DNA of 29,339 nt, taken from positions 1 to 29,339 of the IMG/VR virus record IMGVR_UViG_3300043466_000271. One strand, 5' to 3'. Within the stretch, counting starts at the first letter, position 1; every line of letters starts with the position of its first letter. Positions 24,553 to 29,339 of the stretch are shown here, piece by piece. The notes below the pieces were generated by a model. The model worked only from the letters and a program-made list of their open reading frames with translations. It did not search any database and was not told the DNA's origin. The DNA comes from a virus. The translations under genes and the position numbers were made by a program.

Positions 24553-24567
24553 GTCTAGGGTCTAGAC
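24553..24567 (+). promoter_or_regulatory. GTCTAG-N3-CTAGAC element, copy 1
   Basis: GTCTAGGGTCTAGAC, centre GGT. It lies about 100 nt upstream of the promoter at 24669 and 64 nt before copy 2, not in a leader. Confidence 0.85.
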
Positions 24568-24616: not shown

Positions 24617-24631
24617 GTCTAGACTCTAGAC
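24617..24631 (-). promoter_or_regulatory. GTCTAG-N3-CTAGAC element, copy 2
   Basis: GTCTAGACTCTAGAC, centre ACT (AGT on the other strand). It ends 37 nt before the -35 box of the promoter at 24669, a position suited to an activator or operator. Confidence 0.85.
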
Positions 24632-24766: not shown

Positions 24767-25384
24767 ATGTCAGGAATCGCTACCACTCTCACCCCCGACG
24801 CAACCAAGGCCGACGCTATGACTGACGCGCAACGGACCGCGCATGAGGCCTTCACCAAGGCGGCTACCAAGGCATCCAAGGGCCTCGCCGCAGTGGGGAC
24901 CGCCATGGTGTCCGCCTTGAAGGCGGGGTGTCATGTCGCTCTGTCGCTGGCCCCGCGCACCTACCTTACGCAGGTCCTGACCGCTGCAGGCATGGCCCGT
25001 TCATCCGCGGACAGCGCCGCAGCCATGGCCTTCACGCTCTGGCACGCTCCTGAGGCTGAGGGAATCCCGGCTGAAGGACTCCGGCTGCTGGCCCGTGCTG
25101 CCAAGGGCAAGGATCCGTCGGAAGTGTCGACTGCCATCCGCAACGCCGTCCGTGCGGCTCGTGCCAAGGCACCCATGCGCGCCGATGGCGGTGCGGGCGA
25201 GGCATCGGTGGCGGACATTCGCGCCATCGTGGCGGGACCGTCGACCGCCAAGGCACCAGCGCAGGAACTCGCTGATCTGGCCTATCGTCTCGCCAAGCGG
25301 GACGCGACCGTGGCCAAGGCCATGCTCCGGGATGCCGTGGCCATCATGGGAGACCGCGAAACGGAAGACTGCGCCGACGAATGA
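24767..25384 (+). CDS. Ala-rich protein of unknown function, first early-type gene
   Basis: A 205-aa, Ala-rich protein, helical throughout, with alternating basic and acidic helices and no membrane segment. I chose ATG 24767, which has AAGGA at 24755-24759 and 7-nt spacing; the longer frame from 24674 would start inside the promoter. The leader has the cgAAAGGAA ribosome binding site shared by downstream genes. No family is recognised. It is a monocistronic unit: its own promoter upstream, and a 15-bp element and strong terminator directly behind it. Confidence 0.75.
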   Translation: MSGIATTLTPDATKADAMTDAQRTAHEAFTKAATKASKGLAAVGTAMVSALKAGCHVALSLAPRTYLTQVLTAAGMARSSADSAAAMAFTLWHAPEAEGIPAEGLRLLARAAKGKDPSEVSTAIRNAVRAARAKAPMRADGGAGEASVADIRAIVAGPSTAKAPAQELADLAYRLAKRDATVAKAMLRDAVAIMGDRETEDCADE

Positions 25385-25385
25385 T

Positions 25386-25400
25386 GTCTAGACTCTAGAC
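25386..25400 (-). promoter_or_regulatory. GTCTAG-N3-CTAGAC element, copy 3
   Basis: GTCTAGACTCTAGAC, centre ACT. It starts one base after the stop of the 24767 gene and lies just before the terminator at 25411. Confidence 0.85.
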
Positions 25401-25673: not shown

Positions 25674-25688
25674 GTCTAGGGTCTAGAC
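25674..25688 (+). promoter_or_regulatory. GTCTAG-N3-CTAGAC element, copy 4
   Basis: GTCTAGGGTCTAGAC, centre GGT, inside the repeat-rich non-coding block and 6 nt after a perfect hairpin (25651-25668). No gene start lies nearby. Confidence 0.85.
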
Positions 25689-25855: not shown

Positions 25856-25884
25856 TTGACATGAACATTCGTTTCTGTTACCAT
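25856..25884 (+). promoter_or_regulatory. Sigma70-type promoter
   Basis: TTGACA, 17-bp spacer, TACCAT. The spacer end and -10 (ATTCGTTTCTGTTACCAT) closely resemble those of the promoter at 28327 (AATCGTTTCGGTTAGCAT). The transcript would have a leader of about 78 nt containing copy 5 of the 15-bp element. Confidence 0.8.
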
Positions 25885-25935: not shown

Positions 25936-25950
25936 GTCTAGAGTCTAGAC
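25936..25950 (+). promoter_or_regulatory. GTCTAG-N3-CTAGAC element, copy 5
   Basis: GTCTAGAGTCTAGAC, centre AGT, in the leader of the gene at 25969; 18 nt separate it from the ATG, with cgAAAGGAA between. Confidence 0.88.
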
Positions 25951-26606: not shown

Positions 26607-26635
26607 TTGACACGGTCCCCACTTGCTGATATTAT
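26607..26635 (+). promoter_or_regulatory. Sigma70-type promoter inside an inverted repeat
   Basis: TTGACA starting 5 nt after the stop of the 25969 gene, 17-bp spacer, TATTAT. The arms TCCCCACTT (26616-26624) and AAGTGGGGA (26641-26649) are a perfect 9-bp inverted repeat around the -10 box and start site, placed like an operator. Confidence 0.85.
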
Positions 26636-26672: not shown

Positions 26673-26687
26673 GTCTAGAGTCTAGAC
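26673..26687 (+). promoter_or_regulatory. GTCTAG-N3-CTAGAC element, copy 6
   Basis: GTCTAGAGTCTAGAC, identical to copy 5, also ending 18 nt before the next ATG (26706), followed by acaaccgAAAGGAA. Confidence 0.88.
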
Positions 26688-26705: not shown

Positions 26706-27494
26706 ATGCTTACTGTTCTGCCTGTTCTGCAACCAGTTGCCCCCAAGTGGGCAGAAATCTCCGCCGCAGCCAACCGCGCCTACGACTATATCGTCGAGTC
26801 AGGCAACAACCCGCTGCGTGTCAACTACCACAGCGGTCTACTGACCAAGCCCGGAGCAAACACCAAACTCTCCAAGGCATCGCCCCTGCCCATTTGGGGG
26901 CTGACCTTGGCCCCTGCGGGGGCATCGGGGTACCAGTTGTGCCCGTGGCGTAGCCCGGAATGCGAAGCCGCTTGCCTTGGCATCACCGCAGGTCGCTCCA
27001 AGTTCTCCAATGTGCAGCAAGCCCGGATCAACAAGACGAGATATCTCATGGAGGACCCACTCAACTTCTACTGTGAACTTTTCCATGAGTTGCAGACACG
27101 GGCCCGCCGTGGAGGTCCCTTCGCAATGCGGTGGAATGTCCTATCGGATATCCCCATCGAATCCGTGTGTGCCCGTGCCCTGAACCTGCCCACGGTCAAC
27201 TACGACTACACCAAATCGTATCTACGGGCATTGGCCTCGTTGTCCCGGAAGAACTACAGGCTGACCCTGTCTTACTCCGGCCACAACTTGGAGGAATGCC
27301 TCGACTACTTGGATCGTGGGGGCAATGTCGCCATGGTCTTCAGGGATGTCCCATCGTCGTGGGATCGGTTCCGTGTGATCAACGGTGACGAATCCGACGC
27401 TCGTTGGACCGACCCGCAGGGTTGCATCGTCGGTCTTCGGGCCAAGGGCAACATCAAGGACTCCGTGTTCGTTATGAATCGTTCTCGCGTCTAA
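26706..27494 (+). CDS. Gp88/DUF7227-like phage protein with conserved Cys motif
   Basis: A 262-aa soluble protein. Blocks I recognise from a widespread phage family: LSKASPLPIWGLTLAPA (about residues 55-71), CPWRSPECEAACLGITAGR with Cys spacing x6-x3, then ARINKTRYL, RWNVLSDIP, VNYDYTKS, SYSGHNLEE, and near the end VINGDESDARWTDPQGCIVGL followed by AKG. Mycobacteriophage L5 gp88 and DUF7227 are the names I connect with it; the family has no established function. The three clustered Cys suggest a metal or Fe-S site. It is controlled by the promoter at 26607 and element copy 6. Confidence 0.75.
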   Translation: MLTVLPVLQPVAPKWAEISAAANRAYDYIVESGNNPLRVNYHSGLLTKPGANTKLSKASPLPIWGLTLAPAGASGYQLCPWRSPECEAACLGITAGRSKFSNVQQARINKTRYLMEDPLNFYCELFHELQTRARRGGPFAMRWNVLSDIPIESVCARALNLPTVNYDYTKSYLRALASLSRKNYRLTLSYSGHNLEECLDYLDRGGNVAMVFRDVPSSWDRFRVINGDESDARWTDPQGCIVGLRAKGNIKDSVFVMNRSRV

Positions 27495-27529
27495 GACATC
27501 TCTCTTCTCTTTTCTGAAAGGAACCCACA

Positions 27530-27838: not shown

Positions 27839-27853
27839 GTCTAGACCCTAGAC
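27839..27853 (-). promoter_or_regulatory. GTCTAG-N3-CTAGAC element, copy 7
   Basis: GTCTAGACCCTAGAC, centre ACC (GGT on the other strand). It lies in the 39-bp gap between two genes, 3 nt after a stop and 21 nt before the next ATG, with no promoter visible in the gap. Confidence 0.88.
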
Positions 27854-28144: not shown

Positions 28145-28330
28145 ATGACCAACGACAGCAACAACATTGAAACCATCAACATCACCCCCAAGTGGGAAGC
28201 CGTGATCGACCTGTTCCTCATCGTCCTGAAGCCGCAATGCGACTTCGATACCCTGCAATATGTCCGCAGGGAACTGAAGCGAATCGCGGTGGTCATCGAT
28301 GAAACCAACGACACCATCAAGGGGGCTTGA
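28145..28330 (+). CDS. Small phage protein with ITP-x-WE motif
   Basis: A 61-aa protein starting 3 nt after the preceding stop, without a strong ribosome binding site, so probably coupled. INITPKWEAVIDLFLIVLKP (about residues 11-30) followed by a helix with RRELKRIAVVID matches short phage proteins with the pattern I-x-P-x-WE...L-x-RMA. Function is unknown. Its stop TGA lies inside the -35 box of the next promoter. Confidence 0.7.
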   Translation: MTNDSNNIETINITPKWEAVIDLFLIVLKPQCDFDTLQYVRRELKRIAVVIDETNDTIKGA

Positions 28331-28386: not shown

Positions 28387-28401
28387 GTCTAGGGTCTAGA
28401 C
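28387..28401 (+). promoter_or_regulatory. GTCTAG-N3-CTAGAC element, copy 8
   Basis: GTCTAGGGTCTAGAC, centre GGT, in the leader of the gene at 28430; 28 nt separate it from the ATG, the longest distance among the leader copies. Confidence 0.88.
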
Positions 28402-28429: not shown

Positions 28430-28909
28430 ATGGAAATCCCAGTCAGCATCGTCCTCTCCCCCGAAGCACTCGCTAGCCTCCGGGGATCCACGGGTCCGAC
28501 CCTGTTCGACAAGTCCGAAAGCATCAACAACCTGACCGACAACCCAGAGTTCATCAGCGAAGTCGCCAGTCGGATCCACCCCAGCCAGATCGCGGATCAC
28601 ATCGACACCGACGACCTCGCGGAAGAGATGACCCGCAAGGTCGAACTGGACGCGGGTGAAATCGCGGGTTACATCGATGTCGAGTCCGTTGCGGGCTACA
28701 TCGACCCCGAAGAGATCGCAAACCACTTCGATCCAGACGACATCGCCTCACGCATAGACATGGACGATCTTGTCGAGGCCCTGCCCATGGGCCGTCTGGC
28801 TAACTCCTTGGCGAAGCAGATCGTGGAGAACCCATCGCTTCGGGAAGCCTTGGTTGAGGCGTTCATCAACCGCCTGACCCACAGCCTGCTCCCCAAGAGC
28901 AGCACCTAA
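28430..28909 (+). CDS. Acidic protein with tandem nine-residue repeats
   Basis: A 159-aa acidic protein. Residues 49-66 and 73-117 are made of seven nine-residue units of the form I-D-x-[DE]-[DES]-[IVL]-A-x-x (for example IDTDDLAEE, IDVESVAGY, IDPEEIANH, FDPDDIASR). Residues 40-48 look like a degenerate unit, and a 6-residue break lies at 67-72. The N-terminus is hydrophobic and beta-like (MEIPVSIVLSPEALASL) and the C-terminus is helical (LVEAFINRL). Strong negative charge could mimic DNA, but no family is recognised. The leader has a promoter, element copy 8 and cgAAAGGAA. Confidence 0.75.
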   Translation: MEIPVSIVLSPEALASLRGSTGPTLFDKSESINNLTDNPEFISEVASRIHPSQIADHIDTDDLAEEMTRKVELDAGEIAGYIDVESVAGYIDPEEIANHFDPDDIASRIDMDDLVEALPMGRLANSLAKQIVENPSLREALVEAFINRLTHSLLPKSST

Positions 28910-28957
28910 ACCTTTCGGTGGCTGGGCCGCGCATAGCCGAAGCAACGCGGTTTCCCC

Positions 28958-28986
28958 TTGACACCATCGTCAAAATCGTTTAGTAT
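28958..28986 (+). promoter_or_regulatory. Sigma70-type promoter
   Basis: TTGACA, 17-bp spacer, TAGTAT. Only 6 nt separate the -10 box from the ATG at 28993, so the start site would be at or next to that ATG. Confidence 0.8.
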
Positions 28987-28992
28987 TTAGCA

Positions 28993-29193
28993 ATGGAAGC
29001 AGAACTCCCCACATCTTCTACTTTCGTAGTTACAGATGCCATCGCCATGTCGTACATGGGTTGGCTCAAGACGGATTATCGCCAGTCGTTTGACTGGGCC
29101 GTCGTAGTGTCCGGTTTGACAGACGAATACGCGCTCACAGATGAGGAGCAAGTGTTCATTACCGTTGCCTTGAATCATCCACCACTTGTCTAG
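28993..29193 (+). CDS. Small protein, possibly from a leaderless mRNA
   Basis: A 66-aa protein (for example VVTDAIAMSYMGWLKTDYRQ at about residues 11-30, later DEYALTDEEQVFITVALNHPP). It has no Shine-Dalgarno, unlike all other genes of this region, and its ATG coincides with the predicted start of transcription. Its stop codon TAG lies inside element copy 9. The composition looks like a real protein, but no family is recognised. If it is not translated, the promoter simply serves the next gene with a leader of about 230 nt. Confidence 0.5.
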   Translation: MEAELPTSSTFVVTDAIAMSYMGWLKTDYRQSFDWAVVVSGLTDEYALTDEEQVFITVALNHPPLV

Positions 29194-29202
29194 ACTCTAG
29201 AC
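29188..29202 (-). promoter_or_regulatory. GTCTAG-N3-CTAGAC element, copy 9
   Basis: GTCTAGACTCTAGAC, centre ACT. It contains the stop codon of the 28993 gene and ends 21 nt before the ATG at 29224, followed by acaaccccgAAAGGAA. Confidence 0.88.
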
Positions 29203-29223
29203 ACAACCCCGAAAGGAACTGCA

Positions 29224-29339
29224 ATGTCCAAGACCTTCACCACCGTGTCCGACCTCTCCCGCATCCAGATGCCCGCTGCTACCCGCACTTGGCAACCCGT
29301 GTCTCAAGTCCAGTTGTTCAACTCCATGTGTGATGCGAT
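29224..29339 (+). CDS. 5' part of a gene cut by the window end
   Basis: ATG 29224 follows a cgAAAGGAA ribosome binding site, and the frame stays open for 38 codons to the window edge (begins MSKTFTTVSDLSRIQMP). The leader type (element plus ribosome binding site) is identical to that of complete genes upstream. Too little is present to assign a function. Confidence 0.7.
   Translation, partial: MSKTFTTVSDLSRIQMPAATRTWQPVSQVQLFNSMCDA

What the first reader, a model, noticed from the sequence alone, without database searches (positions are those of the whole stretch)
28958..29202. Possible leaderless gene whose stop codon lies in the regulatory element
The -10 box TAGTAT ends 6 nt before ATG 28993, so transcription would start at about the A of the ATG. 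The frame lacks a ribosome binding site, encodes 66 plausible residues, and its TAG stop is part of element copy 9. Translation of this frame would carry ribosomes into the element in front of the next gene, which could couple or counteract regulation there.
Basis: partly seen in the sequence, partly recalled or inferred. Interest (0 to 1): 0.55.

Follow-up and report, generated by a model that had tools for sequence, protein, structure and literature searches.

The report
Conserved leaderless gene ending inside operator
A small phage gene begins where its messenger RNA should begin, a layout kept in many related phages, and it ends inside a repeated DNA site that probably controls the next gene.

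Summary
Frame 28993-29193 (66 codons) has TTGACA-17-TAGTAT-6 nt-ATG upstream, no ribosome-binding site, and a TAG stop inside a 15-17 bp palindrome. It evolves as protein (dN 0.067, dS 0.346 against its closest relative) and its model is confident (pLDDT 84.7). In 27 of 30 a sigma-70-like promoter lies exactly 6 nt before the start codon. Of the 3 without promoter, 2 have a strong SD and 1 overlaps the upstream stop codon. Leaderless expression is therefore well supported, though no transcript was mapped.

The stop-in-element is real but mostly tight packing: other genes here also end in or beside the palindrome. The palindrome looks like a DNA operator: lineages carry their own versions, and it starts at +26 to +48 of 22 of 33 other promoter-like sites. 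The leaderless promoter has none there. Ribosome coupling is plausible but untested. The protein's function is unknown; I infer a small early accessory protein. Side finding: a covarying pseudoknot motif, unmatched in Rfam where searched, just upstream of the promoter.

The parts
28958..28963 (+). -35 hexamer TTGACA of the leaderless promoter
   Evidence: TTGAC or TTGAT in the 27 promoter-bearing family members
28981..28986 (+). -10 hexamer TAGTAT, 6 nt before the start codon
28993..29193 (+). leaderless small-protein gene (66 aa, three predicted helices); predicted TSS at the A of ATG
29187..29203 (.). palindromic element copy 9 (probable operator); holds the TAG stop 29191-29193
29210..29219 (+). 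CGAAAGGAAC, Shine-Dalgarno of the next gene
   Evidence: duplex -5.9 kcal/mol
29224..29339 (+). start of the next gene (cut by window end); a homologue in G006 has a DUF932 match
   Evidence: on L100:6001-6720; N-terminus by inspection
28920..28950 (+). H-type pseudoknot-like motif GGCT-GGG-CCGCG-CAT-AGCC-GAAGCAA-CGCGG just upstream of the -35
   Evidence: covariation tested on the related pattern; no Rfam match
28430..28909 (+). upstream gene (159 aa, repeated I-A-x-x-I-D motifs by eye), with its own promoter (28327), element (28387) and SD
24767..25384 (+). putative element-binding regulator (205 aa) with a helix-turn-helix-like segment; elements on both sides
   Evidence: inferred
24553..24567 (.). 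element copy 1 GTCTAGGGTCTAGAC
24617..24631 (.). element copy 2 GTCTAGACTCTAGAC
25386..25400 (.). element copy 3 GTCTAGACTCTAGAC
25674..25688 (.). element copy 4 GTCTAGGGTCTAGAC
25936..25950 (.). element copy 5 GTCTAGAGTCTAGAC, +46 of the promoter at 25856
26673..26687 (.). element copy 6 GTCTAGAGTCTAGAC, +32 of the promoter at 26607
27839..27853 (.). element copy 7 GTCTAGACCCTAGAC
28387..28401 (.). element copy 8 GTCTAGGGTCTAGAC, +26 of the promoter at 28327

Best explanation
28993-29193 is a genuine small-protein gene of a T7-like phage, transcribed by host sigma-70-type RNA polymerase from its own promoter. The transcript starts at or next to the A of the ATG, so translation is leaderless. 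SHOWN by sequence comparison: protein-level selection, an aligned start, a promoter at exactly 6 nt in 27 of 30 members, and SD or stop-start overlap in the three members without promoter. The palindrome that holds the stop belongs to the next gene's control region. INFERRED: it is a DNA operator for a phage-encoded dimeric HTH protein, perhaps the product of 24767-25384. Most other promoter-like sites (22 of 33) carry this operator at +26 to +48, before the SD. The leaderless gene has no leader to carry it, so its promoter escapes that control; the first operator its polymerase meets is the one at its own stop codon. INFERRED: a bound protein there acts as a roadblock limiting transcription of the DUF932 gene, and ribosomes following the polymerase through the 66 codons to the operator may weaken that block. 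The protein itself is most likely an early accessory factor exchanged between phages as a cassette.
For: Family: 30 non-identical CDS in 19 clusters. Promoter exactly 6 nt before the start in 27 of 30; L231 and L156 instead have SD energies of -12.2 and -9.9 kcal/mol, and L198 starts as TAATG on the upstream stop. Selection: dN 0.067, dS 0.346, substitutions by codon position 7/2/13, window against G001. Model: three helices, pLDDT 84.7, pTM 0.71. TANNNT about 12 bp before the start is the published sign of bacterial leaderless genes (passages of PMC3160421). Operator: in 8 genomes I count 41 promoter-like sites: 22 have an element starting at +26 to +48, 3 at +65 to +68, 3 weak sites at +166 to +213, 5 (in front of the putative regulator gene) none downstream; of the 8 leaderless promoters 7 have none before +191 to +202 and 1 (L028) none by that filter. 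DNA level, not RNA: lineage-specific palindromes that agree within a genome, and the asymmetric centres GGT and ACC both occur (3 and 1 of 9 in the window, 7 and 4 of 14 in G006); A-C would not pair in RNA. Cassette: window against G006 is 94% identical upstream, 53% in the CDS, 88% downstream; against G001 52%, 87%, 70%.
Against: No 5' end, ribosome footprint, protein or DNA binding was measured. Read-through from the 28327 promoter is not excluded. The SD contrast is not clean: six promoter-bearing members have SD-like energies of -3.8 to -6.2 kcal/mol (L028, L138, L127, L134, L166, L232), though in sequence upstream of the predicted transcription start, and the next gene's SD energy ranges from -9.3 to +0.4. 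The members are not independent, and many came from loci chosen by terminase or by the pseudoknot pattern. The regulator assignment rests on gene position, a predicted helix pair and a by-eye correlation confounded by phylogeny; whole-protein identity does not follow element type (window against G006, same type, 39%; against G013, other type, 40%). Foldseek found nothing in PDB below E = 4.5 for it, and the second look gives only weak ParB/Noc-like matches. 35 of 45 records gave no match to the small gene; many are fragments, but the 13 with terminase identity of 57-62% all lack a match.
Confidence: 0.7

Rival explanations
1. The gene is real but translated from a longer transcript that starts upstream; the promoter next to the ATG is minor and the leaderless geometry is incidental.
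For: A promoter-like site at 28327 reads in the same direction. L231, L156 and L198 show that the gene can do without its own promoter.
Against: In the window a longer transcript would still have no SD. Exactly 6 nt in 27 of 27 promoter-bearing members, with 2-12 allowed, is hard to explain otherwise.
Confidence: 0.12
2. The short frame is a dispensable, randomly open frame over a promoter that really serves the DUF932 gene.
For: It lies between a promoter and the next SD-led gene; Pfam and PHROGs gave no family for the window protein and only weak matches (best E 0.2 and 0.06) for single members.
Against: dN/dS about 0.19, length kept at 62-82 aa, conserved core residues and a confident model.
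Confidence: 0.03
3. The palindromic elements are promoters of the phage's own T7-like RNA polymerase rather than operators, so the stop codon lies in the next gene's promoter.
For: G006 encodes a T7-type RNA polymerase by Pfam and G001 by inspection; the elements stand before many early and middle genes.
Against: They are symmetric, with both orientations of asymmetric centres, absent from window 1-24552 by the element filter and from G006 1-27148 by pattern, and mostly placed downstream of sigma-70-like promoters. Recall: T7-type promoters are asymmetric.
Confidence: 0.1
4. The small protein itself binds the element as its repressor.
For: Phage repressors are sometimes read from leaderless transcripts (recall: lambda cI from PRM), and this gene's promoter lacks an element.
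Against: Window and G006 share the element type but have 36-39% identical proteins; window and G001 have different elements but 86% identical proteins. The model shows three helices; an HTH was not assessed beyond secondary structure.
Confidence: 0.05

Closest known systems
Bacterial leaderless genes (TA-led genes; passages of PMC3160421 and PMC12340547)
   Same: A TANNNT -10 box about 12 bp before the start codon, no SD.
   Different: A conserved phage gene family with a full -35 box, in genomes where neighbouring genes are SD-led.
Mycobacteriophage cluster A stoperators (passages of PMC9283540)
   Same: Many copies of a short repressor-site-like sequence in intergenic gaps as well as near promoters.
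   Different: Stoperators are asymmetric 13-mers whose orientation follows transcription, bound by a monomer; these are 15-17 bp palindromes that differ between lineages.
Cluster K start-associated sequences, SAS/ESAS (passages of PMC3203893)
   Same: Repeats just before the start codons of a subset of genes; half-site consensus differs between subclusters.
   Different: SAS is a 13-bp asymmetric repeat; ESAS are 17-bp inverted repeats with a variable spacer. Here a single compact palindrome, in places carrying the upstream gene's stop codon.
KorB (ParB-family) repressor and its OB operators in plasmid RK2 (passages of PMC11790492)
   Same: A repressor with several dispersed operators in one replicon; the putative regulator aligns weakly to ParB/Noc DNA-binding domains.
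   Different: No sequence match found; RK2 operators lie upstream of promoters, these mostly downstream.
LUZ100, T7-like phage with temperate features (passages of PMC10134795)
   Same: T7-like phage proposed to carry a repressor.
   Different: A MarR-like repressor is proposed there; 'leaderless' and 'operator' do not occur in its main text.

Membership tests
Leaderless (TA-led) gene | TANNNT box about 12 bp before the start codon | tested here: met
   exactly 6 nt between box and start codon in 27 of 30 members, window included
Leaderless (TA-led) gene | no Shine-Dalgarno | tested here: met
   +0.7 kcal/mol in the window; in six other promoter-bearing members an SD-like stretch of -3.8 to -6.2 lies upstream of the predicted transcript start
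Leaderless (TA-led) gene | 5' end of the mRNA at the start codon | not testable with these tools
   needs TSS mapping
Mycobacteriophage stoperators | many site copies in short intergenic gaps | tested here: met
   9 copies in the window; 82 elements in 8 genomes
Mycobacteriophage stoperators | asymmetric 13-mer oriented with transcription | tested here: not met
   palindromes with 6-7 of 7 paired arm positions
Mycobacteriophage stoperators | bound by the L5-type repressor and halting elongation | not testable with these tools
   no binding or transcription data
Cluster K SAS/ESAS | located at translation starts of a gene subset | tested here: met
   52 of 82 elements have an SD-like stretch and start codon within 45 nt downstream by pattern; at least 3 of the 52 fall inside the RNA polymerase gene and are spurious
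Cluster K SAS/ESAS | 13-bp asymmetric GGGATAGGAGCCC repeat | tested here: not met
   different, palindromic sequence
ParB/KorB-type regulator (protein 24767-25384) | ParB-type HTH DNA-binding domain | tested here: inconclusive
   VIA-align Z 6.0, rmsd 4.6, 107 aligned to 1vz0_E; Z 5.0, rmsd 6.0, 117 aligned to 7nfu_A; a designed repeat protein ranks above both at Z 6.8; no Pfam family
ParB/KorB-type regulator (protein 24767-25384) | N-terminal CTP-binding domain | not tested
   no specific search made; the ParB-like alignment starts at model residue 16

The most novel reading that the evidence does not exclude
Placing the stop codon of a leaderless gene inside an operator makes a two-way switch. 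When the operator is occupied, RNA polymerase would stall before the stop codon is transcribed, so the small protein is made only from non-stop messages and the next gene is silent. When ribosomes trail closely, they push the polymerase through, completing the protein and opening the next gene. The frame would thus act both as a gene and as a translated leader that overrides a phage repressor network.
Probability: 0.12. Interest if true: 0.75.

Novelty: new variant of a known kind. Interest (0 to 1): 0.52.

Why it matters
It makes a strong comparative case for a leaderless phage gene, with a natural contrast: 27 members with a promoter at 6 nt, and 3 without promoter that use an SD (2) or overlap the upstream stop (1). 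It also exposes an operator-like network in T7-like phages that I did not find described in the searches, where lineages carry their own palindrome and a candidate regulator. That makes a testable system for repressor-operator co-evolution and for whether trailing ribosomes overcome DNA-bound roadblocks.

Tried and rejected
RNA hairpin reading of the element: rejected because both orientations of asymmetric centres occur (GGT and ACC), which one RNA strand would not treat alike. Small protein as element binder: disfavoured by its mismatch with element type.

Fold of the small protein: no PDB match below E = 1.2. The second look gave Z up to 8.1 to 14-3-3 proteins and MIT/TPR-like helical folds, which for a three-helix model may be only a common arrangement. 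Best BFVD match A0A6J5M794, uncharacterised, 67 aa, E 0.029, TM 0.75, 32% identity. Its profile gave one PDB sequence match, E = 0.76; tblastn in phage records gave none up to E = 10. The next gene's homologue P0002 gave no match in phage records at E up to 0.01.

Host: not assigned. The single genome-contig scan gave two MAG contigs, possibly mis-binned phage. The closest phage records by terminase were at about 61% or less.

L237 was a false relative inside an unrelated gene. One search was translated in the wrong frame and not used. phrog_5301 'transcriptional repressor' on the 159-aa protein (E 0.009) looks like a low-complexity match. A text search for the element and pseudoknot core strings found four papers, unrelated to phages by title (listing only). 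A pseudoknot/phage motif search listed 10 of 39 papers, none on this motif by title (listing only). The leaderless/T7-like search listed 10 of 82 (listing only, apart from passages of PMC10134795).

Full report
What was checked. The window is a fragment of a T7-like podovirus (T7-type terminase and head-tail connector) with no near DNA match among 50,697 phage records (window 1-25000) and none closer than about 61% in the terminase.

The gene is real. A first search found the frame in an 86% identical relative (L001). A search of 45 related records found it in 10, and a profile search of 23 records, overlapping the first set, in 13. A profile of eleven seeds run over 26,920 stop-to-stop frames of 40-220 residues in the loci then held gave 30 non-identical coding sequences below E = 1e-10, seeds included, in 19 clusters at 80% identity. 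Between the window and L001, dN is 0.067 and dS 0.346, with substitutions at codon positions 7, 2 and 13. An alignment of nine members gives a three-helix model with mean pLDDT 84.7 and pTM 0.71. 35 of 45 records gave no match: many are fragments, but the 13 with terminase identity of 57-62%, some of them 29-41 kb long, all lack one, so the family seems confined to part of this phage group.

It is very probably leaderless. Allowing 2 to 12 nt, 27 of 30 members have a promoter of at least 9 of 12 matches, and in all 27 the distance is exactly 6 nt (the start was picked among in-frame starts in the first 60 nt of the open frame by best promoter score). As a base rate, 53 of 6,347 non-identical ATG ORFs of 50 or more codons in the held loci (L002-L006 and L085-L094 left out) have such a promoter. 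25 of these 53 are this family, all at 6 nt; of the other 28, 15 are at 6 nt and 13 elsewhere (family rows read by eye). The three members without promoter are the natural contrast: L231 and L156 start at a GTG overlapping the upstream TGA with SD energies of -12.2 and -9.9 kcal/mol, and L198 starts as TAATG on the upstream stop. The contrast is not perfect: six promoter-bearing members have SD-like energies of -3.8 to -6.2 in the promoter region. Published surveys use a TANNNT box about 12 bp before the start as the mark of bacterial leaderless genes (passages of PMC3160421; for Deinococcus about 6-7 bp before the ORF, passages of PMC12340547). No transcript was mapped, so this stays an inference from sequence.

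What the element is. The window has nine copies, all between 24553 and 29202. Relatives carry the same arrangement with different palindromes: GTCTAAGNCTTAGAC in G001, TTATAGASTCTATAA-like in G046, GTCTAGYSRCTAGAC-like in G016, TTCTAGTCACTAGAA in L231. Within a genome the copies largely agree; between lineages they differ; they stay palindromic. Asymmetric centres occur in both orientations (GGT and ACC), so one RNA strand would carry G-U in some and A-C in others. I read this as a DNA operator for a dimeric protein. In 8 genomes I count 41 promoter-like sites. Of the 33 that are not the leaderless promoter, 22 have an element starting at +26 to +48, 3 at +65 to +68, 3 weak ones at +166 to +213, and 5, all in front of the gene at 24767-25384 or its homologue, have none downstream. 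The leaderless promoter has none before +191 to +202 in 7 genomes and none by that filter in L028, whose copy at the stop is imperfect.

A candidate for the binder. The gene at 24767-25384 lies between elements and has homologues at the same place in seven relatives and further members. Many carry a segment like A-G-x-A-R-S-T-x-Y-Y-L-R-D-I-G; the window model (pLDDT 82.4) has helices 63-73 and 78-93 with a short turn. By eye the second helix looks alike in genomes with the same element and different with other elements, but phylogeny confounds this, and whole-protein identity does not follow element type (window against G006, same type, 39%; against G013, other type, 40%). Fold comparison is weak: nothing by Foldseek below E = 4.5; the second look lists Spo0J 1vz0_E (Z 6.0, rmsd 4.6, 107 aligned) and Noc 7nfu_A (Z 5.0, rmsd 6.0, 117 aligned) below a designed protein at Z 6.8. 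This is a lead, not an identification.

The small protein and the element vary separately. Window and G006 share the element type, yet the protein is 36-39% identical; window and G001 differ in element, yet the protein is 86% identical. Around the gene the window matches G006 (94% upstream, 88% downstream) but not in the CDS (53%), while the CDS matches G001 (87%, with 52% and 70% outside). The gene seems to have been exchanged as a unit while the operator kept the type of its own genome.

The stop codon in the element. Reading, 9 of 19 clusters have the stop inside the element (6 by the strict palindrome filter, 3 imperfect ones by eye), 5 touching it or one base away, 2 further away, and 3 show no element of that type (one of them, L166, has another palindrome just before the stop). 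The element supplies stops to other genes too: 15 of 82 elements in 8 genomes contain the stop of an upstream ORF of at least 60 codons, 6 of them this gene, and 22 more have one within about 25 nt before (some short ORFs there may be spurious). So the overlap is mainly tight packing. It still has a consequence worth testing: the polymerase that reaches this element from the leaderless promoter is followed by translation all the way, whereas at +26 to +48 of the other promoters the element lies before the SD. A trailing ribosome can help RNA polymerase past a LacI roadblock (passage of PMC4132739); conversely, a stalled polymerase would leave the stop codon untranscribed. Neither was measured.

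Comparison with known systems. It works like a bacterial leaderless gene beside an operator array of the stoperator or SAS/ESAS type (passages of PMC9283540 and PMC3203893), but the palindromes fail the defining asymmetry of stoperators and SAS, so I do not file them there. A text search for the element and pseudoknot strings found no phage paper by title, and the 10 of 82 papers listed for leaderless T7-like phages show none on this arrangement by title.

Side finding. Just upstream of the -35 is a pseudoknot-like motif. In 107 distinct contexts, 94 have CGCG within 32 nt; the base after it is the Watson-Crick partner of N in 80 of 94 (shuffles: mean 34, maximum 47), the next outer pair of the first stem forms, wobble included, in 67 of 94 (shuffles: mean 38, maximum 52), and 47 of 94 have an SD-like stretch and start codon shortly downstream. 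The pattern itself fixes most of the stems, and related contigs inflate the counts. No Rfam family reached its gathering score in the 9 and 14 sources searched.

Noticed in passing
window 28920-28950; L117-L235: A compact H-type pseudoknot-like motif (GTGGGNCGCGCATACC ... CGCGN') recurs in 107 distinct viral contexts, in 47 of 94 testable ones shortly before an SD-like stretch and start codon, with covariation and no Rfam match in the sources searched.
   Followed up: partly
window 24767-25384 and homologues: Putative HTH regulator flanked by elements; its second HTH-like helix seems by eye to change with the palindrome of the lineage.
   Followed up: partly
L100 6815-6835, L025 9610, L028 10235, L037 17495: Before the T7-like RNA polymerase gene the element sits a few bases from the ATG, close behind a -10-like box and with no SD, as if it overlapped the transcription start (by eye).
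   Followed up: no
L025 5055-5083: Three overlapping elements in tandem behind the putative regulator gene.
   Followed up: no
L134, reverse strand, 1280-1160: By eye: a -10 box 6 nt before an ATG whose frame runs through a hairpin GGCTCAAGGAGGTCTTGAGCC and the local palindrome in frame into the next gene.
   Followed up: no
window 27489-27497: The GP88-like gene ends in GTCTAAGAC, about one half-site, where G006 (L100 4249) has a whole element: a possible element loss.
   Followed up: no
L231 7562, L156 10576: Members of the small gene family without the promoter have a strong SD and overlap the upstream gene.
   Followed up: yes
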